IMG/VR virus record: IMGVR_UViG_3300030110_003594
Coordinates: 55,869 to 119,868 of that record
From: a virus
Direction: 5' to 3' (one strand)
DNA length: 64,000 nucleotides
A program made the position numbers and the translations under genes. Every line of letters starts with the position of its first letter. The stretch's first letter is position 1. The notes beneath the pieces were generated by a model, which did not search any database, had not been told where the DNA came from, and worked only from the letters and a program-made list of their open reading frames with translations. Below, piece by piece: positions 11,584 through 62,104 of this stretch.

Positions 11584-12105
11584 TTATTTATTTTTCTTAT
11601 ACATATCAGCTACCCTCTTTTTATTTTCCATTCTAATATACTTAGTCCACTTTTTAGGGTAAGACTTAGCAACAGCTCTTTTAAACTGTCTAACAGCTTT
11701 AAATTGCCAAAGCTCTCTATTTTTAAAACGGTATTTAGTAGAATAATTTGTATAAAATATTTTAGCTACTTTACCATCAGTTTCCCAGTTTTTATTCTGT
11801 AAAACTTTACCATATTTTTTAGATAGTGCATAATCCGTATTTACACTTTTTGCAGCTGGACATGTCCCTATAAAAATGTATCCCAAAGAATCAGGGAGTT
11901 CTACACCATCTCTATTTTCTATAACTTCTTTCCATATCTTCTCATTAAATAGGTTAATAACTTTTTTAAATTTATCATTATCTATTTGAGAGTATATAGG
12001 ATTCTTTTCTTTAAATTCATTAATTAAATCCGCGTTTAAAAGCCCTAATACTTTTTCTCTGTATCTTGGAGCATTCAAATTAGGTTTTTTAAAATTGTTT
12101 ATCAT
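11584..12105 (-). CDS. Conserved unknown protein of the tail module
   Basis: 173 residues from ATG at 12105 (MINNFKKPNLNAPRYREK). A longer reading from GTG at 12120 exists, but that codon lies inside the promoter-like motif at 12116-12133, so the ATG is preferred. The protein is Lys-rich and basic, mainly helical, with a central segment SLGYIFIGTCPAAKSVN and a basic C-terminus ending MYKKNK. I recognise no domain. Placed first in the transcription unit that carries the ring-like and muzzle-like genes, it may help tail assembly or be a virion component; that is a guess from position. Confidence 0.7.
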   Translation of the reverse strand: MINNFKKPNLNAPRYREKVLGLLNADLINEFKEKNPIYSQIDNDKFKKVINLFNEKIWKEVIENRDGVELPDSLGYIFIGTCPAAKSVNTDYALSKKYGKVLQNKNWETDGKVAKIFYTNYSTKYRFKNRELWQFKAVRQFKRAVAKSYPKKWTKYIRMENKKRVADMYKKNK

Positions 12106-12115
12106 ATTATTACCA

Positions 12116-12133
12116 TACACTATAATTTACAAA
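12116..12133 (-). promoter_or_regulatory. Late-promoter-like motif (one mismatch to the 17.6 and 20.4 kb copies)
   Basis: The minus strand reads TTTGTAAATTATAGTGTA. It differs in one base from the identical 18-mers at 17639-17656 and 20405-20422. It lies immediately upstream of the 11584-12105 gene and would drive the ring/muzzle/cargo-like unit. Promoter function is inferred from repetition and position. Confidence 0.5.
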
Positions 12134-12154
12134 AAAAAGGTGATTTATTCAAGT

Positions 12155-13336
12155 TTATTCAGGGGAATATGTCAGTTCACATATCTCACCCTTATTAGGA
12201 GTATGTAAAGATAAAACTCCTGATCTTCTTGATCCTACAAATTTATTATGATAATGCCAATAATCTGTTCTTGATAAACTAGGTAATATCTTTAACATAA
12301 ATCCTGTATTTTCCTCTGCTGTTTTGTATTCTATTTTTTTCTTATGATGTAGGTGTCCTGTATATAATGTTCTATATAAAGTATTACCCCATTCTTTTGG
12401 ATACTCCATAGAATACAACATTAATGAATTTTTTGTATTAACATCACCATGTTCAAAAGCAAAGAAGTTATCTCCATATACAAAAACTTTTCTTTCAAGA
12501 TAAACTATATCCCATATTATATTATCATCTTTAAAGCATTTTGATAGAGCATGTGCTAAATGAAATGATGATAATCTATCATGATTACCTGGAATATATA
12601 CTATTTGTAATTCATCACAAAACTGCTTAAGCCAATTTATACTCCACTGTATTGCATCAAAAGCTTGCATATAAGCATCTGTAGCTGTCATACAGTTATC
12701 TAAAGGTGTTCCACTAGTGGTAGTACCACTCCATGTATCCATGTTGATTAGATCACCTCCTATAACGTAATATAATTTTTCTAGATGATGTGATCTAGTA
12801 GCTCTATCAGCAAGATCTATTATTGTTTCTTCAAAGCATTTATCAATAGTTTCATTACCTTCCTTACCAAAATGAATATCTTGTAATGATAAAACTCCAG
12901 CTGTTTTTATTTTACCTGGAGTTTTTATTCTTTTAACTAAGTTATGTTTTTTAGGTTTAAAGTCTTTTAATAATTCAACTACATTATCAACTTCATTATC
13001 TTTTAACTTTGTAACCATTGCAGATACTCTCCAATGATCACCCATTTGTTTATTCCAATAACTAGATAATTTCCATTGTGTAGTATCAATATTTAATACC
13101 TTAATAATTTCTTCAGGAGATTTAGGTTCAGAAGAACTGATTACTTCCATCTTTGCTTCTCCTTTTTCTAAATTATACTCATATGATGTAGAATTAGATT
13201 CAATAAGTTCTTGTGATTTGACATATTCTTTTAATTTATCATAGTCTTCTACTGTGATATTTAGTTTCTCTGCACAGTATTCAGAGGTTTTTTTCCATTT
13301 AAATGATGTTTTGATTTTTTCTAGTAATGATTCCAT
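12155..13336 (-). CDS. Calcineurin-like metallophosphoesterase
   Basis: 393 residues with a complete metallophosphoesterase motif set: DIHFG near residue 151, GGDLIN near 195, GNHDR near 250, EHGD near 292 and TGHLHH near 327. These are the two-metal ligands of this hydrolase superfamily, so the active site looks intact. The roughly 110-residue N-terminus is helical (TSEYCAEKLNITVEDYDKLK) and may bind nucleic acid or protein. The substrate cannot be read from the sequence; nuclease or phosphodiesterase activity is possible. It sits among tail genes, with its own promoter-like motif upstream at 13363-13374, rather than with replication genes, which is unusual and suggests packaging into or processing of the virion. 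Confidence 0.85.
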   Translation of the reverse strand: MESLLEKIKTSFKWKKTSEYCAEKLNITVEDYDKLKEYVKSQELIESNSTSYEYNLEKGEAKMEVISSSEPKSPEEIIKVLNIDTTQWKLSSYWNKQMGDHWRVSAMVTKLKDNEVDNVVELLKDFKPKKHNLVKRIKTPGKIKTAGVLSLQDIHFGKEGNETIDKCFEETIIDLADRATRSHHLEKLYYVIGGDLINMDTWSGTTTSGTPLDNCMTATDAYMQAFDAIQWSINWLKQFCDELQIVYIPGNHDRLSSFHLAHALSKCFKDDNIIWDIVYLERKVFVYGDNFFAFEHGDVNTKNSLMLYSMEYPKEWGNTLYRTLYTGHLHHKKKIEYKTAEENTGFMLKILPSLSRTDYWHYHNKFVGSRRSGVLSLHTPNKGEICELTYSPE

Positions 13337-13362
13337 AAATATATTTTAATTAAAATTGGTGG

Positions 13363-13374
13363 CAATATACAAAA
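13363..13374 (-). promoter_or_regulatory. Late-promoter-like motif upstream of the phosphoesterase gene
   Basis: The minus strand reads TTTTGTATATTG, sharing TTTGTATATT with the other minus-strand promoter-like sites. It lies 27 bp upstream of the phosphoesterase start and directly after a terminator hairpin, so transcription probably restarts here. Confidence 0.4.
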
Positions 13375-13393
13375 AAATATTGTATAAAAAACA

Positions 13394-13419
13394 GAAGCCC
13401 CAGATTTCTCTGAGGCTTC
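13394..13419 (-). terminator. Intrinsic terminator after the FnIII gene
   Basis: On the minus strand an 11-bp stem (GAAGCCTCAGA with TCTGGGGCTTC, one G-T pair) with a 4-base loop is followed by TGTTTTTTAT. This is a standard intrinsic terminator for transcripts arriving from the 13463-14011 gene. Confidence 0.8.
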
Positions 13420-13462
13420 AAACAATTGCAGAGTTAAAACCAACAAACTGTCTCCACTTTTG

Positions 13463-14011
13463 TTATGCTATTGTACTTAAAAACAACTCTACTGAGTCAC
13501 ATGTTGCAGTACTTGTAGTTGCTGCAACTTTAAATTTATATGCTGTACTTGGATTTAATCCTGTTAATTCATATTCTGAAATACCTCCACCTAATGGTGA
13601 AGATGTTGCTAATATATAAGCTCCTGCTGCTGTTCCATAGTACACATTTATTGAAGTTGTACCTGTAGGTACACCAGACCACATTAATTTAACTGTAGTA
13701 TTAGTAACTGTATCTGCCCATATATGTGCAATATTACTATTCCAACATGCAGGATCTTTTACAAACAAGGCCATTTTTTGTAGTATGAAATCTAATCTTT
13801 CTCCTTTATTTACACAGAAAGTTTGACCATTTGTATTTGTTACACAAAAATTATCTTGACAATATGATACACATTCTGCACATTGTAAATCTTCACATAA
13901 CTCTGTTGTTGCCTTTCTATCACAATTATTATATGAACAAGGTGTAGTCATTGCATGATCTCTACAAGCACATGGTGATGATTTAGTATTTCCACATATA
14001 TTACAAGCCAT
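13463..14011 (-). CDS. Small Cys-rich virion protein with C-terminal fibronectin type III domain
   Basis: 182 residues. The first 70 residues are Cys-rich (MACNICGNTKSSPCACRDH, then CEDLQCAECVSYC), a pattern shared with other appendage proteins here. Residues about 98-180 form a fibronectin type III-like domain (VKLMWSGVPTGTTSINVYY, then YELTGLNPSTAYKFKVAA), a fold commonly used on phage surfaces for carbohydrate or cell contact. It is the last gene of a unit that ends at the terminator 13394-13419 and follows the 1,190-residue appendage gene by 19 bp. A likely accessory part of the tail fibre or capsid surface. Confidence 0.7.
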   Translation of the reverse strand: MACNICGNTKSSPCACRDHAMTTPCSYNNCDRKATTELCEDLQCAECVSYCQDNFCVTNTNGQTFCVNKGERLDFILQKMALFVKDPACWNSNIAHIWADTVTNTTVKLMWSGVPTGTTSINVYYGTAAGAYILATSSPLGGGISEYELTGLNPSTAYKFKVAATTSTATCDSVELFLSTIA

Positions 14012-14030
14012 TTTTTTTATTTTTTAATTA

Positions 14031-17000
14031 TTAGGTACATGTTCCTATATTTTTCCAATGAGGTCCTGATGATCCTGCATCATATTGTGCATAATATTTA
14101 CCTGTTGTTCCATCATGAATAGCATACCATTGATTATTAATTAATTCATTCTTTCCTTTAATGTTTTGTGCAGCTGCAGATCTAGTTGAATATGCTCTAG
14201 AATTTAATATAGTTGCAGGGAAAGGTGTTCCTGGTGGAGTATCTCCTTCAGCTGATGTATATATTGGAGCATGTGTAACTGAACCAGCTGCTGTACAAGC
14301 ACTTGGTCCATCTACTGCACTATTTCCAAATCCAACAGCTCCTGCTCCTATTTGACCATATCCTTTAGCAGTAGGTTCATTTACATTACCTGTTGGTAAC
14401 ATATTGAACATTCCTCTAAAATATGTTGTTATATCAGAATTGATAGAATTATCTAATTCTACACCAGATTCTATATAAGCATGTACTGATGTGCTAGTGT
14501 TTGTTGTATCTTTTAAACCTGCTACACTAGTATGATATGGAATATCTGGACCTGCAACTGCAGCATCTAAGTAGCCAGCAAAATTTAGTCCTGTTACTCC
14601 ATTCCATTTATATTTTCTTAATCCAGCTTTTATACCCATATATTCTTGAGGTGTTAATAATGTTTGACCCTGAACGGCTGCAAACATTTGTAATGCTGCA
14701 TTAGCTGTAACAGCTGCTTCATCTCCAACAATATTTACAATAACTTGGTCATATGTAAATGGTTTATGAGTAGCTGTCCAAGGTGAACTAGCTAATCCTT
14801 GGAAAAGACCTGCCCATGCAGATGCAGAAGTTCCGTCATTTATATCTGCAATTGCATCCCAATCTTCTTCATATTTATAAGGTATAGAACCACCTGAAGT
14901 TGTAGGCCCAAAATTTGTCCAAGATGGACTTGTTGGTACTGTTGCTAAATCAGTATATGTACCACGTGTACCAACTGATGTAACACCGTTTACAAATGAT
15001 ATAATTTTAATATCCGTTGGATATTCTGCTGTTGCTCCTGACCAATAAGCTGGAAGTGTTCCTCCACTATTCATTACATTTGTCCACCATCCTCCTACTG
15101 TAGGCCAAGTTATAGATTTGTTAGTACCATCAAATGAATCAAAAGTACCAATATTTTCAACACATGCTTTTACATGTTTTAAATAATCTCCTGATCTATT
15201 TCCATTTACAGCAACATAATAAAAATTAGGTTTAGTACTACCTACAAATGTATTTCTAATATTATTAAATGAAGCTTTAATTTTAATTGCATTAGCTTCA
15301 TTTATACTTTGTGTATCAAAGAATACTATAACATCACTACTTGTATATCTTATTGGTTTTGCTGGTAATATTGAAACAGCTCTTGATAATACTACAGTAC
15401 CACAATCATTAGTTAATGAAACAGTAAATGAATCAGCTACCATGTTTGTATTATCTTGTATATAATTATATCTTACTTGAGAAGTTGATGTTGCTAAATT
15501 TGTTAAAGAACCATGATCTGGTTGTTTAGTAATAGTCCAAGAATATGTACCAGTTCCAGAAGTATATCCTACAGCATCTACTGTTACTTCAGTATTTCCT
15601 CCTTTATTACAATAATAAACTGGTTGAGGTGTATCTAAATATAAACCTGAACAATTACATGCAAATACAACTTTATCTATTGTTTTTGTATTTGTATTAA
15701 CAGCAGCATATACATATAATAAATTTCCTATAGGATCTAATAGTGTTCCAAAATATTTGAATCCGCTATCATTATTATTTCTATTAATAGATGTAGGTGA
15801 CAATGGTGAACCAGTCATACCTGTAACAACAAGAGGTGCTGTTGCTAGTTCACTATCTATAAATGATCCATTATGTGACCATCCTGATATATCTGTAACT
15901 GATGTATCTTGAATTACAATTGGTTCATTTGTAGTATCAAAACCAACAGTCCATTTTGTTTGAGTTACTCCATCATTATAAAAAGCTAAATCCATTGTAT
16001 TAGCTCCTGCTTTTAAGAATGTACTTGGAGTAGCTGTTAAATGCCAAGTTGCATCTGATGATACTCTTGCTTTAGTTGTGCATGTTGGAGCTAATGTTGA
16101 TACTACTTGAATTGCACATTGAGTTGGTGTTGAAGATCCTTTTCTTAATACTTCTACAAAAACTTGATATTGTGATGCTCCTGATAAATTTGAAAATGTA
16201 CCACTTATTCCAGAACTAAATGCTGTATATGAACGTGAATCTAGTAATTTACCTGTAGACGTTCTAAGTACTGCTGTTATTGTATGACCTGAATTTGCAG
16301 GAATTCTTATATTACTAACAGAAAATGGAATTGAATCACTTGTAACAGCTCCTATAGTTATATCAGGACATACTAATTCATTATCTATAGTAAAGTTTTG
16401 TACCTCTTGGCACATGTTATCTGCATTAGAACTACAAAATTCTACTTTTACTGAGTAATTGCTTCCTAAATCTAAATTACCCATATTACCTGCACCTATT
16501 GTATATGCAGTATTATTTTGATAATTTCCAGATACATCTACATATTTTACTAATGAATTTAATGATGCATCTGTTATAGTTACTTTTGTTCCTTGTGGAT
16601 TACAATCAGAATATGAAGTAGGTATATTTGTTCCTTGAAAATCTAAAGCAACAGCTGAGAAAGCACCTTCTGATGTTCTTGTGATAGATCCATTAACAGA
16701 ATATGTAATATCACCACATAGAGGATTTGCTACTGTTTCTTTTATACTTTGTACAGCATTTCTTGTATCATTCAGTGTTACCCATAAATTTTGTACTGAT
16801 TGTGCTAAGTTTACTGGGTTACCTATAAATTGAGGTATTGCACTCATTGTTCCACTACCACTTAATTTATCTCTACCTCCTAATGCTGGTGCAACATTTA
16901 AAGCTGTATTTATTGCAGCTGGTGTTCCTGTTGCTCTTTCTAATTCACCTAAAGTTTGTTCTGTAGCAACTACCACTGATTCTAATCCCATTGGTACACC

Positions 17001-17603
17001 AGGTGTTCCAACATATGAAGGTATAACCATTGAATGAGGATTTTCACCACCTCCAGGTGATGTTCCATGTTCATGACAACAATGATTTTCAATATGTGTT
17101 ATTCTACCTTCGTGATTTGCTACTATTGTATTAATACTACTTATTGCACTTATATTATCACAAATTTTATTTGCAAGAAGTTGTGCATATCCAAAATTTG
17201 AATTTGCATCATATAATGGTAATTCTGTAACTAATCTACCTGTACCTTCTTCTGTATATTTTAAACATGGAGGTAATGGTATAACACATGAACAAGGATC
17301 TGTTGTTTGTCCTGAGTTTTCACAACATCTACAAAGCTTATCAACTATGTTTGTTATTAAAGTTTGTACATCATTAGCTTGTCCATATTCACTAATTAAA
17401 CATCCTTGATTAATTGTAGCTATGTCTACCCCTGGTGATACACTTGTTGTATTAAGTATTTCATCACATAACTTAGCTATTATAGTACTTATAGTATCTC
17501 CTGTGCATACATCAACACATGGCAAATCAGGACCTTGCCAAACAACGCAATTTGAAGATGTTTCATCACATCCGTTAGTATTATTTGATTTATTTGGTAT
17601 CAT
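14031..17603 (-). CDS. Large tail-fibre/appendage protein with Ig-like and vWA-like domains
   Basis: 1,190 residues. The N-terminus (CVVWQGPDLPCVDVCTGDTI, then CRCCENSG, CSCVIPLPPC) has the Cys-containing anchoring motif seen in appendage proteins of Bacteroidota phages. FnIII/Ig-like beta domains follow (about residues 400-520 and 655-755). From about residue 757 a vWA-like fold appears: VIVFFDTQSINEANAIKI (degenerate MIDAS, D at about 762), IKIISFVNGV, and QVIVNIVGDEAAV at about 950-962. The C-terminus ends YYAQYDAGSSGPHWKNIGTC, a typical fibre tail. A promoter-like 18-mer lies at 17639-17656. It probably contacts the host surface. The vWA call rests on pattern and on matching segments in the 695-residue protein. 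Confidence 0.7.
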   Translation of the reverse strand: MIPNKSNNTNGCDETSSNCVVWQGPDLPCVDVCTGDTISTIIAKLCDEILNTTSVSPGVDIATINQGCLISEYGQANDVQTLITNIVDKLCRCCENSGQTTDPCSCVIPLPPCLKYTEEGTGRLVTELPLYDANSNFGYAQLLANKICDNISAISSINTIVANHEGRITHIENHCCHEHGTSPGGGENPHSMVIPSYVGTPGVPMGLESVVVATEQTLGELERATGTPAAINTALNVAPALGGRDKLSGSGTMSAIPQFIGNPVNLAQSVQNLWVTLNDTRNAVQSIKETVANPLCGDITYSVNGSITRTSEGAFSAVALDFQGTNIPTSYSDCNPQGTKVTITDASLNSLVKYVDVSGNYQNNTAYTIGAGNMGNLDLGSNYSVKVEFCSSNADNMCQEVQNFTIDNELVCPDITIGAVTSDSIPFSVSNIRIPANSGHTITAVLRTSTGKLLDSRSYTAFSSGISGTFSNLSGASQYQVFVEVLRKGSSTPTQCAIQVVSTLAPTCTTKARVSSDATWHLTATPSTFLKAGANTMDLAFYNDGVTQTKWTVGFDTTNEPIVIQDTSVTDISGWSHNGSFIDSELATAPLVVTGMTGSPLSPTSINRNNNDSGFKYFGTLLDPIGNLLYVYAAVNTNTKTIDKVVFACNCSGLYLDTPQPVYYCNKGGNTEVTVDAVGYTSGTGTYSWTITKQPDHGSLTNLATSTSQVRYNYIQDNTNMVADSFTVSLTNDCGTVVLSRAVSILPAKPIRYTSSDVIVFFDTQSINEANAIKIKASFNNIRNTFVGSTKPNFYYVAVNGNRSGDYLKHVKACVENIGTFDSFDGTNKSITWPTVGGWWTNVMNSGGTLPAYWSGATAEYPTDIKIISFVNGVTSVGTRGTYTDLATVPTSPSWTNFGPTTSGGSIPYKYEEDWDAIADINDGTSASAWAGLFQGLASSPWTATHKPFTYDQVIVNIVGDEAAVTANAALQMFAAVQGQTLLTPQEYMGIKAGLRKYKWNGVTGLNFAGYLDAAVAGPDIPYHTSVAGLKDTTNTSTSVHAYIESGVELDNSINSDITTYFRGMFNMLPTGNVNEPTAKGYGQIGAGAVGFGNSAVDGPSACTAAGSVTHAPIYTSAEGDTPPGTPFPATILNSRAYSTRSAAAQNIKGKNELINNQWYAIHDGTTGKYYAQYDAGSSGPHWKNIGTCT

Positions 17604-17638
17604 AAATATTCTTTTTACAGCTGTAAATTACTAATGTA

Positions 17639-17656
17639 TACACTATAATATACAAA
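17639..17656 (-). promoter_or_regulatory. Late-promoter-like motif (exact copy)
   Basis: The minus strand reads TTTGTATATTATAGTGTA, identical over 18 bases to the site at 20405-20422. A TAAATTTG string, matching the Bacteroidota -7 form TAnnTTTG, overlaps its 5' end. It lies 36 bp upstream of the 1,190-residue appendage gene. Confidence 0.6.
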
Positions 17657-17691
17657 TTTATTAATAAACAACCAAGTGTTTAACTTTACTA

Positions 17692-19779
17692 TTATGTTTC
17701 AGGCGTACAATCAACAGTTAATTTTGTACACACAACTTTTGTTTCTTCAGGTGTAAGTGTAATATCTATCCTTTGTTGATCACAACCGCCTGTTGTTGTG
17801 AAACAATGACATACATCTATAGAGTGTTTTGTATTAGTACTAGCAAAATACTCTGTATGAAGATAAAAACCATCTTTATCTGTCATTCCCACTTCTCTGT
17901 TATCTATATAAATTGGGTAACATTCAATAGGGTTACCCTGATCATCTTTAACATATATACTTATACATTCAGCATCATTAATACATTCTTCATCTCCTGG
18001 ATTCCAAAAGGCTTCTAAGTTTGTTACAAAATCATCTTTTTCAAAACCTGAAACTGGTTGATCAACATTATATCCCCAATTATATTGATCAAGTTTACCC
18101 TTATTTGCAGTTACATAAGGATTAGTACCAGACGTTACTGCTGTTAAAGTACTTACACCATTTGATGGTGCAGATGTTAATAAACCTGAACCAACAGGAT
18201 TATCTCCTGATGTTATTGCTCCAATTACATGTAATGGAAATGCTTTATGAGCATCTTGTACAGTTTTTGGATATGCTGGATATATAAAATAATTAGCTTT
18301 ATAATCTGATCCTTGAGCTAAAAATTTATTATGTTCAATTACAAACTTATCATAATCAGCATTCCAACATGGTGTAGTTGCTAATGTTGTTCCATCTGAT
18401 CCACCACTAGCATGTATCCATGTAGGTGTAGTACTATTTTGATCTACATGATATGGTTGTGGGTATGGTTGTGGAGATGTAGCTTCATCAGCAAATATAA
18501 CAACTAAAAGTTCTTTACTTTGATTTATAGGAGGAGGACCTTGACTTTTTACCGGTAGACCTGAAGGAGTTACTTCACTACCACTATAAGTTGCAGTAGT
18601 AACACCGTTTCCATTATCATACCATTCTATATCTAAAGTATTAATCATATAATCTAAAACCCCCCAATACTTCCATGATGATTTTGATGATGGTGGTTGA
18701 GCTGAATCAACAGCTCCTCCTGTACCACTTGACCAACTTGGATTTTGAGGTCCTATAACTCCTGGTGTTCCTAATCCGTCTGAATAAGCTCCACCACAGA
18801 ATCCAGCATTATTAAATGCTCCTGTATAAGGCATTATAGCCCAATCTAACCATCTTTCTCCATATATTGAAGTATGATATACTCTACCATTAAATGCTCC
18901 TATAGCTCTTAAACCATTTAACCATTGTTCAACTATAATATGTGTATCTTTAACTTCTGCTACACCTAATGATGTTACATCATAAAAGAAATACATATCT
19001 GGATCTTGTCTTCTTCCCTCTCCACAAAATGTACAATCTAAACTTATATTATATTTACACCATTCTACTTTTTCTCCAAAATTTGTTAAATTACGTGTAG
19101 AACCATCTACAAAAGAATTTGGATTCCATGCTCCAATAGTTGTAGTTTTTACTTGATATAATTCTGATCCATCTCCATTTTTATCTATAATTATAGTTAA
19201 TACTTCATCTTCATCAGCACCATTTTTAGGATCTGCAGCATTAGTATTTCCATAAGTTGTTATTTTAAAACTATCACCAGGTACTGCAGCAGGAACTTCA
19301 CCATAACCTACAGTAAGAAATGTAGTAGTTTGATTAGCTGATATTGTACCATCATATTTTGCTAACATATAGATCTTAGTTTTTTCACGTACTAAATATG
19401 AATCTGCGTCAATAACAGCATCACTAAATTTTATAATTTGAGTTTTAGTTGTAGTAATTACTGTAGAACTAAGAGGTGTACAAGGTCTGCATACTTTTCT
19501 AACCCAATCAGGAATAGTAGCATTTTCAAATAACCACTTATAACTTTCATATCCTGTATCTGTATGATCTGTGTATCCTTTGTCTAGGTATACTGGTAAT
19601 TTTTTATCATCCCAGTCACAAAGTTCTTTTTTAGAAGTTATCTTTTCTAATTTATCTAATGAACAACACGGAGACAAGCCATATCTTTCTGATCTCATGT
19701 TTCTAAATCTTAGATCAGCAAATTCTTGTTCTGTCTGTATTTGTTTCTCTATTTCCTCATTTGTCTTTTTGCAACTCAT
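17692..19779 (-). CDS. Appendage protein with vWA-like core and C-terminal beta domain
   Basis: 695 residues. The N-terminus is helical (EEIEKQIQTEQEFADLRFRN) with Cys (SPCCSLDKLEK). A beta region follows, then a vWA-like core: MYFFYDVTSLGVAE at about residue 260 in place of the MIDAS strand, VYHTSIYGERWLDW, and KELLVVIFADEATS at about residues 417-430, matching the DEA segment of the 1,190-residue protein. The last 90 residues (CISIYVKDDQGNPIECYPI, then REVGMTDKDGFYLHTEYF) resemble a carboxypeptidase-regulatory or transthyretin-like beta domain. Rich in Gly, Thr, Asn and Cys as expected of a virion surface protein. Probably a second type of fibre or spike; adhesion is inferred. Confidence 0.65.
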   Translation of the reverse strand: MSCKKTNEEIEKQIQTEQEFADLRFRNMRSERYGLSPCCSLDKLEKITSKKELCDWDDKKLPVYLDKGYTDHTDTGYESYKWLFENATIPDWVRKVCRPCTPLSSTVITTTKTQIIKFSDAVIDADSYLVREKTKIYMLAKYDGTISANQTTTFLTVGYGEVPAAVPGDSFKITTYGNTNAADPKNGADEDEVLTIIIDKNGDGSELYQVKTTTIGAWNPNSFVDGSTRNLTNFGEKVEWCKYNISLDCTFCGEGRRQDPDMYFFYDVTSLGVAEVKDTHIIVEQWLNGLRAIGAFNGRVYHTSIYGERWLDWAIMPYTGAFNNAGFCGGAYSDGLGTPGVIGPQNPSWSSGTGGAVDSAQPPSSKSSWKYWGVLDYMINTLDIEWYDNGNGVTTATYSGSEVTPSGLPVKSQGPPPINQSKELLVVIFADEATSPQPYPQPYHVDQNSTTPTWIHASGGSDGTTLATTPCWNADYDKFVIEHNKFLAQGSDYKANYFIYPAYPKTVQDAHKAFPLHVIGAITSGDNPVGSGLLTSAPSNGVSTLTAVTSGTNPYVTANKGKLDQYNWGYNVDQPVSGFEKDDFVTNLEAFWNPGDEECINDAECISIYVKDDQGNPIECYPIYIDNREVGMTDKDGFYLHTEYFASTNTKHSIDVCHCFTTTGGCDQQRIDITLTPEETKVVCTKLTVDCTPET

Positions 19780-19796
19780 ATTCTTTTATTTAAATA

Positions 19797-20375
19797 TTAG
19801 CAACACACTGAACATGTAATCTTTTTCAGTTTTGCTTTTGCAAAATTATAAAGCTCCATTCCTTCATTAGGACTTTGACAATATTCAACCTTTGCTTTTG
19901 CAGCATCAATTAATGTTCTTATATATTTCATTTCTCCCATTAAATCTTTAAATGTTGATGAAGGTTCACATGGAGTTACATCCAACTCACATAACTTTTT
20001 ATAATATGTTGTAAGTATTTCTGTAGTTCTTAAATGATTATATTCTACATAAACTTTATCATTTGGAGAAAGACTGTATTTAATTATATAAATACCATCA
20101 TTTATAGATTTTCTTGAAGTAGAACAACTTGTTGATTGTAATCCTAATGCACACGCATTTAGATTTAATCTACCAAAGCCATCCCAATCTCCTGATGCAT
20201 CTTTTACAATTGTTGTTTCAATTATTTTTGGTGCAGTGTAACCTGGTGCCGTTATTGATATTTCAGGACAACTTACTCCTAATTTGGAGTCATATGAACT
20301 TGTATCAACAATAGGTAGTATTTCACAATTTGCACTATCTGGAATGTCTAGACTTAAAATATGTTTAACTGCCAT
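19797..20375 (-). CDS. Cys-rich virion protein, unknown role
   Basis: 192 residues, with many Cys residues, including the C-terminal KKITCSVCC. The N-terminus is beta-like (MAVKHILSLDIPDSANCEI) and the C-terminal 70 residues helical (FKDLMGEMKYIRTLIDAAKA). The form matches small conserved structural proteins that precede fibre genes in Bacteroidota phages, perhaps a fibre adaptor or chaperone. It is first in its transcription unit, directly after a terminator (20446-20474) and a promoter-like 18-mer (20405-20422). Confidence 0.6.
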   Translation of the reverse strand: MAVKHILSLDIPDSANCEILPIVDTSSYDSKLGVSCPEISITAPGYTAPKIIETTIVKDASGDWDGFGRLNLNACALGLQSTSCSTSRKSINDGIYIIKYSLSPNDKVYVEYNHLRTTEILTTYYKKLCELDVTPCEPSSTFKDLMGEMKYIRTLIDAAKAKVEYCQSPNEGMELYNFAKAKLKKITCSVCC

Positions 20376-20404
20376 AAAAAAATTATTTAGAAAAGTATAC
20401 TCTT

Positions 20405-20422
20405 TACACTATAATATACAAA
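20405..20422 (-). promoter_or_regulatory. Late-promoter-like motif (exact copy)
   Basis: The minus strand reads TTTGTATATTATAGTGTA, identical to 17639-17656. It lies 30 bp upstream of the 19797-20375 gene and just downstream of the terminator 20446-20474, so it restarts transcription after the preceding unit ends. Confidence 0.6.
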
Positions 20423-20445
20423 ATATTCTAGATTAAATGAAATAA

Positions 20446-20474
20446 AAAGGGAGCAGATTTTTCTGCCCCCTTTC
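20446..20474 (-). terminator. Intrinsic terminator after the 471-residue virion protein gene
   Basis: On the minus strand a GC-rich stem (AAAGGGGGCAGA with TCTGCTCCCTTT, one mismatch) is followed by a T-rich tail (TTATTTC). It lies 28 bp past the stop at 20502. Confidence 0.8.
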
Positions 20475-20501
20475 TAATCTATGTATATAGAGTGTTAACT
20501 A

Positions 20502-21917
20502 TTAGTAGTCACCACCTTTGTCAACTAGATCTGCAACAGTTGCAACAACACCTGAGCCATCAAGTTTCATAATTCCAGCATCAATTGCAATTGCTAACCA
20601 ATCTGCATCTAATGATGTAGTTGCAGCAGAAGCACCTGTACATTTAACATATACTTTGTAGTGATATTGATCATTATCAAATACTCCAGAAGGATTGTTA
20701 AATCTAGGAACATTGTGTAACAAGTGATAAACTCTAAAGTGACCATTACAAGAAGCTCCTGTAGCATCTCTACCTAAGTCACCAATAATTCCACTCATTC
20801 CTTCTTGCTCTCTGAATCTACTAGAGTCTCTGTTTCCTTGATTATAAGGAGATTGTCTGTAATTTTCAGTTTTAAGAATGTCATTAATTCCTGTGTCAGA
20901 AGAAGTTCTTCTTTGTTTAAACGCAGTACTTTCAGTTCCTGTTACATAACCTAAACAAGCAACACATGGTTGACCAACTTCATCTTGTAAATCAGCAGTT
21001 GATTTAAGTCCTCCCATTAAATAAAAATCTCTTGTATCAAATGAACAAGAAGAGAACTGAGTTTGTAATTCACAACTTGTGTTAAGTGTGATTCTTACTT
21101 TATACTCATTAGCAGCAACCCATTCTCCTGTAGCAGATGCAGCAGCTTGATCAGCTGTAACACCTTTTGCACCTCCTTCATAGATTTTTTCTATTTTTGC
21201 TTGAGAAGCAGCACCAAATACTGTTGGAGCACCTACAGTATTTACTAATAATGTAGCAGTACCTAATTTACTCATAATAGGATCATTATTAAAATGATCT
21301 ACAAAGTTCATAGCAACAATAGATGGAGCAATACCAGAGTGAGTTGAATCTTGTGTTACACAACACATGTCAACATTTTCTTGTCCAGCAGCTACTCTTG
21401 CAGCCCATGCTAAAGCAGGATTTGCTGCAGCATCTCCAGAACCTGGCATTGGTAATGAACCAGATAAAGATTGATAAGCATTGTGATTTAATAATCTTAA
21501 TGCAGCAGTACCTTTAACGTCTACTCTTAAAATAGGATCTGTTCCACATGGGAAACAAGACATATATTGAGCAGTAGGTTTAATAAGTACATCAAAAACT
21601 TGAGCAGTTTCATCTACACAATCAGTGATCCACATATTTGAGATATACTTTTTAAGGATCATTTTTGATTTAGTTGTTTCCTTGTAACCTCCATGTCCTG
21701 GATTGTTACCTATTGTATCATTCGCATGGAATGATGCTTGTGTTAAATAGAAGCCACCCGCTTGTCCAGCAACTGCTACAGCATTCATTACTTTGTAACC
21801 TGAATCTACAAGTGCAAAATGTCCTGAAGTTGTTAATGAGGCTGAAGTGTCTCCAATTGTTTGGTTATGCGTTTGACACCAAAAGGCTTTGTCAAAAGCA
21901 TGATTAAAATAAGCCAT
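20502..21917 (-). CDS. Abundant-type virion protein, 471 residues, unknown role
   Basis: Ala/Gly/Thr-rich soluble protein with many aromatic and Cys residues (FPCGTDPILRVDVKGTAALR, then QENVDMCCVTQD, then CVACLGYVTG). No enzyme motif is visible. Codon use differs from its AT-rich neighbours, with more C-ending codons, as in the capsid gene, which suggests high expression. It forms its own transcription unit: a promoter-like motif at 21973-21990 upstream and a strong terminator downstream. A head decoration, tail or spike component is likely; the sequence does not decide between them. Confidence 0.65.
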   Translation of the reverse strand: MAYFNHAFDKAFWCQTHNQTIGDTSASLTTSGHFALVDSGYKVMNAVAVAGQAGGFYLTQASFHANDTIGNNPGHGGYKETTKSKMILKKYISNMWITDCVDETAQVFDVLIKPTAQYMSCFPCGTDPILRVDVKGTAALRLLNHNAYQSLSGSLPMPGSGDAAANPALAWAARVAAGQENVDMCCVTQDSTHSGIAPSIVAMNFVDHFNNDPIMSKLGTATLLVNTVGAPTVFGAASQAKIEKIYEGGAKGVTADQAAASATGEWVAANEYKVRITLNTSCELQTQFSSCSFDTRDFYLMGGLKSTADLQDEVGQPCVACLGYVTGTESTAFKQRRTSSDTGINDILKTENYRQSPYNQGNRDSSRFREQEGMSGIIGDLGRDATGASCNGHFRVYHLLHNVPRFNNPSGVFDNDQYHYKVYVKCTGASAATTSLDADWLAIAIDAGIMKLDGSGVVATVADLVDKGGDY

Positions 21918-21972
21918 AATTTCTAATTTTTGTGTTGAGCTTTACCTCAACTGGTTAATATTGATATTTATA

Positions 21973-21990
21973 TACACTAATAATATACTA
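21973..21990 (-). promoter_or_regulatory. Late-promoter-like motif (variant with one inserted base)
   Basis: The minus strand reads AGTATATTATTAGTGTA, the TATATTATAGTGTA core with one extra T. It lies 56 bp upstream of the 20502-21917 gene. A weaker match than the other copies. Confidence 0.4.
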
Positions 21991-23931: not shown

Positions 23932-25566
23932 TTAGAATGATCCTCCTGTTACAGGATTCTTCATTACAATCTTCAATACCTTAGTTGGATCTTTCACCCA
24001 AATAGAAGGCATTGTTTGAGTCATCATCACTCGGTATCCATTAAAGTTACCAGATGAAGCAAACCCTTGAGTTCTTCCCATATAGTCCATAGTACCATTT
24101 TGGTAGAACCATTTTAATTGATTATCCCAAGATAATTTCAATAAGTGAATATTGTCATTACCTGACTCAGTGATGTCAAAGATAATAAAGCTATAAGAGC
24201 TTAATGGTCTTCCATCAATAAGTGGATTTTCAATATCATTAGTATGTAAATTGTCAAATGCAGGATTTAATACAAATCTTACGTTTGCCAAGAATGGAAT
24301 TACATAAGAAGTGAATGCATATCCAAATCCTAAGTCCATACCTGATCCAGATACAATTCCGTTTGAATCAGCATTGATTACGTAGTTAGTACCTAATCCA
24401 GCTGCTTCTGCTGCAATTGCGTCATTAACAAGTTTCATACCACCAATACCAGTCTGTACAATTAATGTACGTTGTGGATCTGGTCCTTCTAATTCAACTT
24501 TACCTTGGTAGAAGTTGTAAAGCTCAGTTTTAAACATATCTAAGCTGAAAGAAGACTTATTATAGATTCTCTTGTAAGAGTTATCTAATTGCTTCCAAAG
24601 ACCAACTGACATTCTGATGTCATCCGGCCCATCTTGTTTAACTCTACCACCGTGACCCCACATTAAGTAAGTCTCAATGTCACTTGCAATTTTATTCAAG
24701 TGAGCAGCTTCTAAGTTAGTTAAGAAAGTTCTTGATAAGCTTCCATTATCAAATGCTCTACGTACGTAGTCAGCACCCATAATTTCAACCATACTTTCTA
24801 ATGAAGAAACTGAAGGATCAACGTCTTGGTCAAATGTTCTCCAAATCTCTGTTACAGGAATAGAACCATCAGCATTCATTCCTCCTTTAAGCATTAAGTC
24901 TGCTCTTGAAGAAATAGAATAATGAACGTGTGCTTCTGCTCCTCCTACAAAGTTGTAGAATTCACGGAAACCTGTTCCTGTTGTTAGATCTGAGAATCTT
25001 TCACCATACTCACCACGTGCAGAACCTTTTCTAAAGAATTTAGTTCCTGATGCTAAGTACTTGTCTGCTAGACCTGCTGTATTATTACTGTTTACAAGTT
25101 GTACAGTATAAACAAATCCGTCACCTGATGGTAAAATATCATCAGCAGTAACGTAAAGTTCTTTACCATTGTACTTGTCATAAGTAATAATGTCACCATG
25201 TCCAAATGCTCTCTTACTTAAGAGAATTTTGAATGTTTGTCCATCCACACCTCTTGATGTTCCTGAAGCGTCAGTAACGCCATCAATTTTACCAAGTGAA
25301 TATGGAAGGTCTTGTGCAACGGGAGTTTGCCATTTATACTCACCACGTGCGTTGTCCACCATAATTGTATTGTTACCACCAAATGAAGCTAATTGATACA
25401 AAGGCATTTCTACCTTTTGTGTCATAGCCCACAAGTCAACTGGACCCATATCCATAGGTTCAGCAGAACCCAATAATTGAGTTAAGTGGTAAGAATCAAC
25501 GTGAGAACTAGCTTTGTAGTTTGTATCTCTAAGGAAAATCCCATTATTTAATACTGGAGTTGCCAT
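23932..25566 (-). CDS. Major capsid protein
   Basis: 544 residues; assigned by position and character. It lies four genes after the terminase and follows portal, acidic scaffold-like and small beta-rich genes. It has no N-terminal signal. Segments such as RRAFDNGSLSRTFLTNLEAA, then WGHGGRVKQDGPDDIRMSVG and FVLNPAFDNLHTND resemble crAss-like HK97-fold capsid proteins. Its codon use is enriched in C-ending codons relative to neighbours, as expected of the most abundant virion protein. An A/C-rich unstructured leader lies upstream and a strong hairpin downstream. It forms the icosahedral shell. Confidence 0.85.
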   Translation of the reverse strand: MATPVLNNGIFLRDTNYKASSHVDSYHLTQLLGSAEPMDMGPVDLWAMTQKVEMPLYQLASFGGNNTIMVDNARGEYKWQTPVAQDLPYSLGKIDGVTDASGTSRGVDGQTFKILLSKRAFGHGDIITYDKYNGKELYVTADDILPSGDGFVYTVQLVNSNNTAGLADKYLASGTKFFRKGSARGEYGERFSDLTTGTGFREFYNFVGGAEAHVHYSISSRADLMLKGGMNADGSIPVTEIWRTFDQDVDPSVSSLESMVEIMGADYVRRAFDNGSLSRTFLTNLEAAHLNKIASDIETYLMWGHGGRVKQDGPDDIRMSVGLWKQLDNSYKRIYNKSSFSLDMFKTELYNFYQGKVELEGPDPQRTLIVQTGIGGMKLVNDAIAAEAAGLGTNYVINADSNGIVSGSGMDLGFGYAFTSYVIPFLANVRFVLNPAFDNLHTNDIENPLIDGRPLSSYSFIIFDITESGNDNIHLLKLSWDNQLKWFYQNGTMDYMGRTQGFASSGNFNGYRVMMTQTMPSIWVKDPTKVLKIVMKNPVTGGSF

Positions 25567-26084: not shown

Positions 26085-27383
26085 TTATATTCTTTTAAAA
26101 ATGTTTTTATTTCCTCTTGCAATTTTTCTTTTAGGTCTTTCAGCTGGAGCTTCTTCAACTGGTGCTGCAGAAGATCTATTGCTTTGTGCAGTCTTTAATT
26201 TTCTAACAGTTTGCTCAACAGCTGTGTTTGCTCCTTTTTTCATTATTTGTGCTTTATATCCATTTGGATCTGCAAGCAACCATAATGCTTCTGTTACTAA
26301 GTTATAGTTTGGTTCAACAAACTGATATTTTTCTAACAGATGACCTAATAGGTTTGTATTCTGTCCATTAATTGATGGATAAGCTGGATTAACTAATCCG
26401 TTATAAAGAAGTGATTGTACTTTTTTATCTACTTTCATATCACCTACTTTACCATCTTTTAATGTATTATATACATTTTGCATATAGTTTTGTGATGCTT
26501 GTTCTTGTTGCTTTCTTTTCATATCTTGTTCTTGCAACTTTCTTGCAACAACTTTTTCTTGCATCTTATCTAATTTTGGTTTAAACTTGTTTGCTTGAGT
26601 TTCAAGCTTTCCAAGATCTTTCCAAACTTCTATTTCTTCAGAGATTTCTTCTTGAGTTCCATATCCTGTAGCTCCTAAATATTCTCTAATTATATGTTCC
26701 TGATCTTTTTCATTTTTAACATCTAAATCTCTAGTTTCTTCAACTACAGATAATGCTTTAAATATTCCTTTTAGATCAGTTCCTCCATCTGCAACATATC
26801 TTGCTGCAATCTGAAGTTCTTGTGGTAAACTTTCAAAGAACTGTTTTGGAGTTTCTCTCCTTACTGAATTTGCTTTTTCATCTAAATTAGCCTGAATAAG
26901 TTCTTGCCAATCTTTTGCACTATACTCCTCTAAATCTTTTCCATCATCAAAAGCTAATATTTTTTCCTCATCTATGAGTTTTCTAAAAACATCAGAAACT
27001 CCTGTTATAGCTTTTCTTCCTCTTTTTTTAGTTTCTGTTTTTTCTTCTTCATTTTCTTCAACTTCATTATCTCCTAGGATTTCATTAAGTTGTTCTTCAG
27101 AAACTTTAGTTTCAGTATCTTTTGCTTTTACTTCTTCTTCTTTTTTAGCAGTTTCAGCAACAGTTGGTTCAACTTCTTCAGTTTTTTCTTCAACTTTCTC
27201 TTCTGCTGGTTTATCAATAAAAGACATATCAATATCTTTTTTTCTACTAAATACATTTGGTTTTTTTGATTCATCTTCTGGTAACGTAATTGAATCTGCT
27301 CCAGGAGCACCGTTAAAGATTTCATCAAGGTTAACCTCTACCTTTTCTACTTTAGTTTCAATTGTTTTTGATTCTTCTGACAT
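26085..27383 (-). CDS. Acidic scaffold-like head assembly protein
   Basis: 432 residues. The N-terminal 130 are very acidic and low-complexity (EEKVEEKTEEVEPTVAETAK, then DNEVEENEEEKTETKKRGRK). Helical, Gln/Lys-rich coiled-coil segments follow (KMQEKVVARKLQEQDMKRKQ). The C-terminus is basic (RPKRKIARGNKNIFKRI). Charge polarity, helicity and position between portal and capsid are typical of scaffolding proteins, which guide shell assembly and are later lost. In crAss-like phages the gene between portal and capsid often has this form. Confidence 0.6.
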   Translation of the reverse strand: MSEESKTIETKVEKVEVNLDEIFNGAPGADSITLPEDESKKPNVFSRKKDIDMSFIDKPAEEKVEEKTEEVEPTVAETAKKEEEVKAKDTETKVSEEQLNEILGDNEVEENEEEKTETKKRGRKAITGVSDVFRKLIDEEKILAFDDGKDLEEYSAKDWQELIQANLDEKANSVRRETPKQFFESLPQELQIAARYVADGGTDLKGIFKALSVVEETRDLDVKNEKDQEHIIREYLGATGYGTQEEISEEIEVWKDLGKLETQANKFKPKLDKMQEKVVARKLQEQDMKRKQQEQASQNYMQNVYNTLKDGKVGDMKVDKKVQSLLYNGLVNPAYPSINGQNTNLLGHLLEKYQFVEPNYNLVTEALWLLADPNGYKAQIMKKGANTAVEQTVRKLKTAQSNRSSAAPVEEAPAERPKRKIARGNKNIFKRI

Positions 27384-27422: not shown

Positions 27423-27441
27423 CATATACAATATAATAAAG
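27423..27441 (-). promoter_or_regulatory. Possible promoter upstream of the scaffold-like gene
   Basis: The minus strand reads CTTTATTATATTGTATATG, containing TATATTG, near the -7 form, 40 bp upstream of the scaffold-like start. It is less similar to the 18-mer motif than the others and the region is AT-rich, so a chance match is possible. Confidence 0.3.
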
Positions 27442-36994: not shown

Positions 36995-37210
36995 TTATTT
37001 AGATTTAACCTTTTCAAATGTACTAATACCAAAACAACCCAGTGTTACTAACACAAAAGAATTGTAAATAGTATTATTAATGATAAGCTCTTGACCACAA
37101 AGACCGGTTATTAAATCTGTAATAGCAAATAATACCATAAGAACAAAAGATGCAAAGCCTACAATAGCTTTCTCATTAATGTCATTTTGATCTTTGAACA
37201 ATTTCCACAT
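36995..37210 (-). CDS. Holin-like small membrane protein
   Basis: 71 residues with two hydrophobic segments (IVGFASFVLMVLFAITDLIT and IYNSFVLVTLGCFGISTF) and a Lys-rich C-terminus (EKVKSK). The layout and length fit small phage holins of Bacteroidota phages. It lies three genes before the L,D-transpeptidase-like putative endolysin. Holin function would be to open the inner membrane at lysis. Based on topology and position. Confidence 0.65.
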   Translation of the reverse strand: MWKLFKDQNDINEKAIVGFASFVLMVLFAITDLITGLCGQELIINNTIYNSFVLVTLGCFGISTFEKVKSK

Positions 37211-38024: not shown

Positions 38025-38387
38025 CTATCTTTTTCCACCGTGGTATTCCACGGCATGACCCATTTCTATTAATTTATCATTCACGCAACATTCTTTTTCT
38101 TCTACAACTATATGTAGTTTACCAAGAACTCTTCCAAACTTACCCACCTTCTCACTCTCTATTACAAAATATTTCTCTTCATTTGTTTTTTCCAGTAGAT
38201 CTATTAACGCTTGCTTTGCAGCAAGACCACGTTTCTTTTCTTCTAGATCCCGTGTTCTTGATTCCGGTGTATTGATCCCTGCTAATCTAATTCTCTTATG
38301 AACTGTAATATCAAACCCCAGGTCAATGATGGCATCTAAGGTATCCCCATCAACCACTCTATCTAGTTTTGCTTTATAAACGTACAT
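38025..38387 (-). CDS. Staphylococcal-nuclease-like (SNase) endonuclease
   Basis: 120 residues with the thermonuclease pattern: LDRVVDGDTLDAIIDLGFDI (D-G-D-T metal site), RIRLAGINTPESRTRDLEEK (catalytic Arg and Asp/Glu region) and GKFGRVLGKLHIVVEEKECC (second Arg). Length is normal for the minimal domain and there is no signal peptide, so it acts inside the cell or in the virion. A role in host DNA breakdown or repair is likely. It overlaps the upstream gene by 14 bp. Its codons are more GC-rich than those of nearby genes. Confidence 0.88.
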   Translation of the reverse strand: MYVYKAKLDRVVDGDTLDAIIDLGFDITVHKRIRLAGINTPESRTRDLEEKKRGLAAKQALIDLLEKTNEEKYFVIESEKVGKFGRVLGKLHIVVEEKECCVNDKLIEMGHAVEYHGGKR

Positions 38388-38715
38388 CTGGTATTATCTC
38401 TTTTAATTCATTATCTATTTCCGTCTTGTTGATTATATCACGGATCTTAGCACATTTCTCATACTCCTCTTGTTCCACGAAGTAACCCATCATATTTTCC
38501 AACGTTTCTATTGACGGCTCTTCTTCCGGTTTATGAGCCATGAGAGCACTCATACCATTTCCTGTTTTCTCATCCATTAAATCTTGAAACTTTTTTTCTT
38601 TTGTTATTATCATGAATGAATTTCTGAATGCCGTGTCCACTATTAGATCCTCTAGTTCTAATCTCTGTGCATACGTTAATCCATTAAATTCATCCTCATT
38701 ATATTCTTCTGACAT
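38374..38715 (-). CDS. Small protein with C-terminal UVR-like motif
   Basis: 113 residues. The C-terminal part, IETLENMMGYFVEQEEYEKC followed by AKIRDIINKTE, fits the UVR motif (a helical pair known from UvrB/UvrC and Clp-associated McsA proteins). The N-terminal part is acidic and helical. It is the first gene of the minus block, next to the divergent control region, and is translationally coupled to the SNase. Possibly a repair or protease-adaptor interaction module. Confidence 0.6.
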   Translation of the reverse strand: MSEEYNEDEFNGLTYAQRLELEDLIVDTAFRNSFMIITKEKKFQDLMDEKTGNGMSALMAHKPEEEPSIETLENMMGYFVEQEEYEKCAKIRDIINKTEIDNELKEIIPDVRL

Positions 38716-38772: not shown

Positions 38773-38789
38773 TATACCCAATATACAAA
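38773..38789 (-). promoter_or_regulatory. Promoter-like motif at the head of the minus block
   Basis: The minus strand reads TTTGTATATTGGGTATA, sharing TTTGTATATT with the late-promoter-like sites. It lies 58 bp upstream of the 38374-38715 gene, with a flanking ACCCAA/TTGGGT inverted repeat that could be an operator. It would drive the first minus-strand unit. Confidence 0.45.
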
Positions 38790-38864
38790 AAATTTTTGGG
38801 TAATTAAAATGTTTTATGTGTCAAGTGCTTGAAACCTTCTAACTATCAGCTCCCCGGTTTACTC

Positions 38865-44700: not shown

Positions 44701-45177
44701 ATGTTTACTGATGAACAACTTACAAAATTAAAAAAGTCACAGGATACTGTGCAACTTCATAGACTAGGTATATTAGATCAATATAATAGTTATGATTTTA
44801 AAATTGATTATAGCAAATTAAATCCTCAACAACATTTCTTATTTAAAAGAGTGTTACATGGATTAAAGTTATATAAAAAAGAAGAAATTGATAAAATGCA
44901 TTGGGACAAGAAGAGAAGGATAATTAAAGTATGGAAAAGATCCCAAAATGTTATCAACAAATGGAAACAATGGTTAAATCATAAGAAAGCTAATGCAATT
45001 TTTGCTATATTTGAAAATAGTAAAGATGCACAGGCTTTAATAAAAGTTCCATTTGAATATATGCCAGATTATAAGAACAAAATGAGTCTTAAACAATGTG
45101 GTATAGAATATGAGCATCTTATAGTAAAGTTTATTGATGAGGGATTATTACCTCGTAATTATTTTGAAATAAAATGA
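44701..45177 (+). CDS. Unknown basic helical protein, 158 residues
   Basis: Lys/Trp-rich (DKMHWDKKRRIIKVWKRSQN, then VINKWKQWLNHKKANAIFAI). Helical throughout, predicted nucleic-acid binding by charge. It is followed by HNH and helicase genes with 4-bp and 1-bp overlaps, suggesting a common DNA-processing role. No domain recognised. Confidence 0.6.
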   Translation: MFTDEQLTKLKKSQDTVQLHRLGILDQYNSYDFKIDYSKLNPQQHFLFKRVLHGLKLYKKEEIDKMHWDKKRRIIKVWKRSQNVINKWKQWLNHKKANAIFAIFENSKDAQALIKVPFEYMPDYKNKMSLKQCGIEYEHLIVKFIDEGLLPRNYFEIK

Positions 45178-61557: not shown

Positions 61558-61565
61558 TATATTTG
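61558..61565 (+). promoter_or_regulatory. Bacteroidota-type promoter with TAnnTTTG -7 element
   Basis: TATATTTG (61558-61565) with TTG at 61533-61535, 22 bases upstream, fits the Bacteroidota -33/-7 layout. The downstream leader ends AAACTGATATG. It probably drives the 61589 gene. Confidence 0.5.
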
Positions 61566-61588: not shown

Positions 61589-62038
61589 ATGGCAAAAAAA
61601 ATGAAAAAGCATGTAGAGGAAAACCCAAAGACTATGATGTTAATCAAAAGTGCATTTGGCTCTATGAAAAGTTTTAAATTAATACCTATAAGTAATGATT
61701 GTCCTTATGTTGAGTGTTTATTTTCACCTGAACAAAAAATGATGGTTGTTATAGGAAAATTTATGAAACAAAGTTATCATATGGTACAAAGAATAGATGA
61801 TAATGGAGACCCATTACCTGTTAAAGGTAAACCAAGACCAAACGGTAAAGACGTTAGAGAAGAAAGAAGATTGGTTGACACTTGTTCAGAACACTATGTA
61901 GTTACTGAAGAAGAAATAAGAGAAATGATTCAAATGTTTGCTGTTAATCCAGATGCATTTGATTTAGATGAATTCTTTTTAGTGGAAAGTGAATTAGTAG
62001 GTTCTACAAATACTCCACCTATCTTAGAAAAAGTATAA
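61589..62038 (+). CDS. Conserved unknown protein, 149 residues
   Basis: MAKKMKKHVEENPKTMMLIK starts a small protein with a beta core (KSFKLIPISNDCPYVECLFS, then PEQKMMVVIGKFMKQSYHMV) and acidic helical C-terminus (EEEIREMIQMFAVNPDAFDL). It has its own promoter and ends at a strong terminator, so it is transcribed alone, often a sign of high or special expression. No domain recognised. Confidence 0.65.
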   Translation: MAKKMKKHVEENPKTMMLIKSAFGSMKSFKLIPISNDCPYVECLFSPEQKMMVVIGKFMKQSYHMVQRIDDNGDPLPVKGKPRPNGKDVREERRLVDTCSEHYVVTEEEIREMIQMFAVNPDAFDLDEFFLVESELVGSTNTPPILEKV

Positions 62039-62059
62039 ATATTAACCCTTCTAAAATTA

Positions 62060-62086
62060 AAGGGAGCTTCTGGCTCCCTTTTTTTT
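62060..62086 (+). terminator. Intrinsic terminator before the DNA polymerase gene
   Basis: AAGGGAGC pairs with GCTCCCTT, loop of 5, followed by eight T. A classic terminator 22 bp past the 61589-62038 stop. Confidence 0.92.
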
Positions 62087-62104
62087 GGATCAAACTGACA
62101 TGAC

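What the first reader, a model, noticed from the sequence alone, without database searches (positions are those of the whole stretch)
12116..21990. Repeated minus-strand motif TTTGTATATTATAGTGTA as a phage late promoter
Two identical 18-mers (17639-17656, 20405-20422), one single-mismatch copy (12116-12133) and one with an inserted base (21973-21990) each lie just upstream of a virion gene. Shorter TTTGTATATT copies lie at 13363 and 38773. The shared 3' half (ATAGTGTA) goes beyond the host -7 element, pointing to a phage-modified or phage-encoded polymerase specificity.
Basis: seen in the sequence. Interest (0 to 1): 0.65.

Follow-up and report, generated by a model that had tools for sequence, protein, structure and literature searches.

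The report
Late-gene promoter of marine crAss-like phages
A short DNA signal repeated in front of this crAss-like phage's late genes is very probably a start-of-transcription signal; it is conserved across related phages and differs from the signal used by its bacterial host and by the phage's own early genes, so the phage probably redirects the host's transcription machinery late in infection.

Summary
The repeats are real: exact 18-mers at 17639 and 20405, one mismatch at 12116, a shifted form at 21973. The window is part of a 119,868-base crAss-like phage, probably infecting Bacteroidota. Nine related genomes carry the motif in front of orthologous genes. TTTnGTAWATT occurs 48 times in 12.8 kb of sense-strand DNA upstream of late-strand genes, never in reverse there, never in sense upstream of early-strand genes, and at about 0.01/kb in coding DNA.

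A TTG sits exactly 20 nt upstream at some sites, so the layout matches the Bacteroidota sigma-A promoter (TTG near -33, TAnnTTTG at -7), but TG at -6/-5 is replaced by AT and TTTnG is added in front. Early genes of the same phages keep the host box (24 observed, 7.8 expected); late genes do not (13 vs 10.1). phi17:2, crAss001, phi14:2, Carjivirus and Lbo-JY46 lack the late class.

Best explanation: a clade-specific late promoter, read by host RNA polymerase after a phage factor changes its -7 specificity. The promoter is well supported; the factor is inferred, and no sigma homologue was found. New variant of a known kind.

The parts
12116..12133 (-). Late promoter core TTTGTAAATTATAGTGTA, upstream of gene 11584-12105
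   Evidence: orthologous sites in relatives with the form TTTGTAAATTATAATGTA or close variants
12150..12152 (-). TTG at the -33 position, exactly 20 nt upstream of TAAATT
   Evidence: Read from sequence; TTG offset peak at 20 over all sites
17639..17656 (-). Late promoter core TTTGTATATTATAGTGTA, upstream of gene 14031-17603 (1190 aa)
   Evidence: motif in all 9 scored upstream regions of orthologues
17673..17675 (-). TTG at the -33 position, 20 nt upstream of TATATT
20405..20422 (-). Late promoter core TTTGTATATTATAGTGTA, upstream of genes 19797-20375 and 17692-19779
   Evidence: motif upstream of the orthologue in 10 of 10 genomes
20443..20476 (-). Intrinsic terminator of gene 20502-21917, immediately upstream of the 20405 promoter
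   Evidence: Terminator scan, 15-pair stem
21973..21990 (-). Late promoter, shifted-tail form TAGTATATTATTAGTGTA, upstream of gene 20502-21917 (471 aa)
   Evidence: motif upstream of the orthologue in 8 of 10 genomes
13362..13373 (-). Late promoter variant TTTGTATATTGC, upstream of gene 12155-13336 (phosphoesterase/exonuclease family)
   Evidence: conserved as TTTTGTATCTTGC in relatives, 8 of 10 genomes scored positive
13394..13419 (-). Intrinsic terminator immediately upstream of the 13362 promoter
27428..27440 (-). Late promoter core TTTATTATATTGT, upstream of gene 26085-27383, first of the presumed unit that contains the major head protein 23932-25566
   Evidence: Posterior 0.98 in G000; motif upstream of the orthologue in 9 of 10 genomes
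38778..38790 (-). Late promoter variant TTTTGTATATTGG, upstream of gene 38374-38715
   Evidence: motif upstream of 5 of 7 orthologues
61558..61565 (+). Contrast: host-type -7 box TATATTTG in front of early-strand gene 61589-62038
   Evidence: TAnnTTTG enriched upstream of early-strand genes
44701..45177 (+). Candidate (not shown) specificity factor: 158-aa early-strand protein conserved in all 10 genomes, not found in five reference phages
   Evidence: confident all-helical model, mean pLDDT 91.7; no match to sigma or any other known fold

Best explanation
The repeats are the -7 region of a clade-specific late promoter. Full form: TTG at about -33 (at some sites), a 20-nt spacer ending in TTTnG, then TATATTAT at -12 to -5, and start of transcription near the following [A/G]TGTA. 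It drives about ten transcription units on the late strand (structural genes, giant virion proteins, other late-region genes). Mechanism, inferred: host Bacteroidota RNA polymerase transcribes early-strand genes from host-type TAnnTTTG promoters; a phage early product then acts on the holoenzyme, as a substitute sigma or as a sigma-appropriating factor, so that it recognises TTTnG-TATATTAT and moves to late genes. Shown by computation: the motif, its strand and gene-class restriction, its conservation, the -33 spacing and the early/late contrast. Inferred: that it starts transcription, the timing, and the factor.
For: (1) De novo motif search on minus-strand upstream regions of G000 returns TTTTGTATATT; the plus strand does not. 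(2) Ten genomes, dinucleotide-shuffle controls: late upstreams TTTnGTATATT 36 vs 0.2, GTAWATTAT 58 vs 0.9; early upstreams 0 vs 0.1 for TTTnGTATATT. (3) Strict orientation: 48 sense, 0 reverse in late upstreams; coding about 0.01/kb. (4) Orthologous placement in front of genes 16, 25, 32, 33/34, 39, 40, 42, 44, 45, 50 and 67 across genomes with portal identity of 63-92%. (5) A second information peak, TTG at -35/-33, spacer 20; the 51 host-type TAnnTTTG sites in the same phages have the same -33 peak (TTG offset 20: 12, offset 19: 6) but no preference for G at -13 (0.18 against 0.92 at late sites). (6) Two strong terminators lie directly before two of the promoters. (7) Host is probably Bacteroidota: type IX secretion sorting domain on a phage protein and TAnnTTTG early promoters; published host box TAnnTTTG at -12 to -5 (PMC9723704; PMC7366714). 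(8) crAss001 late genes are thought to depend on host RNA polymerase (PMC8375218).
Against: No transcript data. No sigma homologue among 72 smaller proteins by Pfam; the one candidate modelled has no sigma fold. The -33 TTG is present at only 14 of 78 sites, many of them orthologues of one gene. Some sites are hybrids with a host-like TTTG tail (gene 32: TATCTTTG). 'Late' is inferred from gene content and strand, not timing.
Confidence: 0.7

Rival explanations
1. Ordinary host sigma-A promoters: TATATTAT is only a natural variant of TAnnTTTG that the unmodified host holoenzyme reads, and the late restriction reflects descent and copying of a successful promoter rather than a specificity switch.
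For: Same -33/-7 frame and 20-nt spacing as host-type sites; the published sigma-A motif comes in several variants (PMC9723704); hybrid sites with TTTG exist.
Against: The two classes separate by gene class: TAnnTTTG 24 vs 7.8 early but 13 vs 10.1 late; GTAWATTAT 58 vs 0.9 late. Positions -6/-5, T and G in the host box, are A and T in about 80% of late sites. Five reference phages show no enrichment of the AT tail, and TG is their usual enriched tail.
Confidence: 0.15
2. Promoter of the phage's own RNA polymerase (the crAss-type enzyme, DFDID motif in the 5198-aa protein), newly made late in infection.
For: The phage encodes a protein with the signature of such an enzyme (DFDID at residue about 4113); crAss001 authors raise a possible late role for its subunits (PMC8375218).
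Against: The motif keeps a TTG at -33 and TAnnTT at the host spacing, expected of a sigma-guided bacterial holoenzyme. phi14:2 and crAss001, crAss phages with the virion enzyme, lack the motif.
Confidence: 0.13
3. A host alternative sigma factor (ECF or sigma-54) reads the promoters.
For: Flavobacterium psychrophilum has eight alternative sigma factors (PMC9723704).
Against: The known motifs do not fit: SM4 is -24/-12 sigma-54, SM6 has a CGT box, SM5 is TAnnTTGY.
Confidence: 0.04
4. Chance or composition effect of AT-rich intergenic DNA, or an RNA element rather than a promoter.
For: TTTGTATATT alone is not enriched over the whole window.
Against: Shuffle controls, zero reverse-strand copies in late upstreams, orthologous placement; no Rfam match.
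Confidence: 0.01

Closest known systems
Bacteroidota primary sigma (sigma-A / sigma-ABfr) promoter: TTTG or TTG near -33, TAnnTTTG at -7 (PMC9723704, PMC7366714)
   Same: TA at -12/-11, TT at -8/-7, TTG near -33 with 20-nt spacing
   Different: TG at -6/-5 replaced by AT; strong TTTnG at -17 to -13; restricted to late phage genes
T4 late promoter with gp55/gp33/gp45 (PMC2988020)
   Same: A phage late class dominated by one extended -10-like element, set apart from the promoters of early genes
   Different: A -33 element persists at some sites; no gp55 or other sigma homologue found; different host phylum and sequence
crAss001 and phi14:2 late genes (PMC8375218)
   Same: Related phages; late genes thought to be read by host RNA polymerase
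   Different: They lack the motif and show host-type TAnnTTTG instead
Flavobacterium psychrophilum SM5 promoter TAnnTTGY (PMC9723704)
   Same: A variant -7 box built on TAnnTT at the same position
   Different: Tail is G-pyrimidine, not AT; serves chromosomal genes

Membership tests
Bacteroidota sigma-A promoter | -7 box TAnnTTTG | tested here: not met
   Late upstreams 13 observed vs 10.1 expected; AT tail dominates
Bacteroidota sigma-A promoter | TTG near -33 at 19-21 nt spacing | tested here: met
   Offset-20 peak and information peak at -35/-33, though only in a subset of sites
T4-type late promoter system | Phage-encoded sigma-2-like recognition protein (gp55) | tested here: inconclusive
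   No Pfam sigma in 72 proteins; candidate 44701-45177 has no sigma fold match; larger proteins not all tested
T4-type late promoter system | Sliding clamp dependence | not testable with these tools
   Needs biochemistry
Phage late promoter class | Enriched, oriented and conserved upstream of late but not early genes | tested here: met
Phage late promoter class | Transcription starts at the motif late in infection | not testable with these tools
   No RNA data; phage known only from metagenomes
Crassvirales-like phage | Portal and large terminase of the crAss type | tested here: met
Crassvirales-like phage | Giant RNA polymerase with DFDID motif | tested here: met
   ADFDID in the 5198-aa ORF; motif only, no fold test

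The most novel reading that the evidence does not exclude
The phages encode a late specificity factor with no recognisable sigma homology that reprograms the -7 recognition of Bacteroidota RNA polymerase from TAnnTTTG to TTTnG-TATATTAT, a lineage-specific invention within the crAss-like phages, possibly one of eight conserved clade-specific proteins.
Probability: 0.35. Interest if true: 0.72.

Novelty: new variant of a known kind. Interest (0 to 1): 0.52.

Why it matters
How crAss-like phages, among the most abundant phages known, switch on their late genes is open: the virion polymerase is thought to handle early genes and the rest is assigned to the host enzyme without a known switch. Here one group of phages carries two promoter classes built on the same frame that differ at defined bases, and the class without the host tail marks late genes. 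That makes the switch testable and gives a short list of genes to test. It also gives a practical sequence tag for calling late transcription units in this clade.

Tried and rejected
Sigma-70 reading (TTGnnn-17-TATATT): the IMG/VR pattern search also pulls in unrelated phages with TTGACA-17-TATATTATAGTGTAA promoters, so the 14-mer alone is not clade-specific, but the host inferred here is Bacteroidota. ATAGTGTA as the key element: rejected, tail spacing varies. Same motif throughout the crAss-like phages: rejected, 0-2 copies of the core in each of nine reference phages. Protein 44701-45177 as a sigma-like factor: confident model but no match in PDB folds, viral model folds or PDB sequences, so it stays only a candidate. 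Rfam: nothing. Megablast against phage records found no match. Literature searches found no described promoter of this form in crAss-like phages in the open-access library; this is not proof of absence, because most subscription papers, the phi14:2 polymerase paper among them, are not held.

Full report
What the window is. The window is bases 55869-119868 of a 119,868-base virus record. Portal, large terminase and head protein match PHROG families, and tblastn of the portal ranks the phage with Leptolyngbya phage Lbo-JY46, Cellulophaga phi17:2 and gut crAss phages. A 5198-aa ORF upstream of the window carries ADFDID, the crAss-type polymerase signature (the meaning of the motif is from general knowledge). 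A 1054-aa phage protein ends in a type IX secretion sorting domain (PF18962, 5e-12), which points to a Bacteroidota host.

The observation. No other copy with up to two mismatches exists in the whole record. Window-wide counts of the short form are at chance, so position is what matters.

Relatives. A protein search and a promoter-pattern search in IMG/VR brought in related contigs; 14 of 15 long ones tested encode the same portal family at 63-92% identity. Ten genomes including this one were read in pieces, genes were called with a simple caller, and genes of relatives were classed by their homologue in G000: M (minus strand: structural and late region) or P (plus strand: replication and early region). 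One isolated plus-strand gene (ribonucleotide reductase, gene 27) falls in P and has a motif-like site in 5 of 6 genomes.

The motif. De novo search on the minus-strand upstream regions of G000 alone returns TTTTGTATATT. With dinucleotide shuffles: M regions TTTnGTATATT 36 vs 0.2 and GTAWATTAT 58 vs 0.9; P regions 0 vs 0.1 for TTTnGTATATT. Counts of TTTnGTAWATT: 48 sense and 0 reverse in M regions; 0 sense and 7 reverse in P regions (read as divergent intergenic regions where it faces an M gene); 24 in 2 x 1110 kb of coding DNA. It recurs in front of orthologues of genes 16, 25, 32, 33/34, 39, 40, 42, 44, 45, 50 and 67, in most or all genomes for most of them.

Anatomy. A weighted profile over 43 gene-by-clade groups shows T at -17 to -15, G at -13 (0.92), TATATTAT at -12 to -5, a weaker TG(T/A) near +1 whose spacing varies, and a separate peak TTG at -35 to -33. 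Positions are numbered by analogy with the host box; the true start is not mapped. TTG lies exactly 20 nt upstream of the TA at 14 of 78 sites and rarely at neighbouring offsets; about six different genes contribute. In the window, the promoters at 12116 and 17639 have it (12150-12152, 17673-17675). Two strong terminators sit directly in front of the 20405 and 13362 promoters. The map gives transcription units that begin at genes 67, 50 (with the major head protein), 45, 44, 42, 40 and 39 in the window; the ends of the units are inferred.

The contrast that carries the interpretation. Host sigma-A reads TAnnTTTG at -12 to -5 (PMC9723704; PMC7366714). In the same phage genomes TAnnTTTG is enriched in front of P genes (24 vs 7.8) but not M genes (13 vs 10.1). 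The 51 TAnnTTTG sites upstream of non-M genes have the same -33 TTG peak at offsets 19-20 but no preference for G at -13 (0.18). So the two classes share frame and spacing and differ at -6/-5 and at -17 to -13. Among all TAnnTTNN tails, AT is the enriched one for M (70 vs 30) and TG for P (24 vs 7.8). In crAss001, phi14:2, Lbo-JY46 and phi17:2 the top tail is TG on at least one strand, Carjivirus shows only a weak TG excess, and AT is nowhere enriched. The pattern TTNGTAWATTAT occurs 0-2 times in each of nine reference phages.

Mechanism. Shown: a conserved, oriented, gene-class-specific element in a bacterial promoter frame. Inferred: that it is the late promoter, that host core polymerase uses it, and that an early phage product supplies the new specificity. 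Published work on crAss001 also gives middle and late genes to host polymerase (PMC8375218). No sigma domain was listed for 72 smaller proteins. Eight proteins are conserved in all ten genomes and undetected by profile in five reference phages. One of them (44701-45177) was modelled with high confidence but resembles no known fold, so it is only a candidate.

Limits. Genes were called by a simple script; early and late are inferred from strand and content; relatives are not independent samples (G003 is 92% identical in portal); no expression data exist; the literature library lacks most subscription papers.

Noticed in passing
L004:9366-12530 (minus; record G000 C1, same coordinates): A 1054-aa phage protein ends in a type IX secretion C-terminal sorting domain (PF18962, 5e-12), as if the phage product were exported by the host's own secretion system.
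   Followed up: no
L190-L192 (PP438436.1): Lbo-JY46 is recorded as a phage of the cyanobacterium Leptolyngbya, yet its minus-strand (late) genes carry the Bacteroidota -7 box TAnnTTTG (10 vs 1.6 expected) and its portal is crAss-like; the true host may be a Bacteroidota companion in the culture.
   Followed up: partly
Orthologues of gene 32 (G000 C1, upstream of the giant virion proteins): The box TATCTTTG ends only about 4 nt before the called ATG in several genomes, which predicts a leaderless mRNA or a wrongly called start.
   Followed up: no
window 62039-63530: About 1.5 kb with only one 79-aa ORF on the opposite strand among ORFs of 60 aa or more, in a phage that is about 94% coding.
   Followed up: no
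window plus-strand early block and L004: Pfam matches among small phage proteins include GroES (Cpn10), a SET domain, a spore photoproduct lyase family and DUF932.
   Followed up: no
Loci among L018-L128, e.g. L020, L022, L033, L067: An otherwise distinct group of phages, linked by a homologue of the 71-aa protein at window 36995-37210, carries TTGAC-type promoters ending in TATATTATAGTGTAA, in some contigs two within a few hundred bases.
   Followed up: partly
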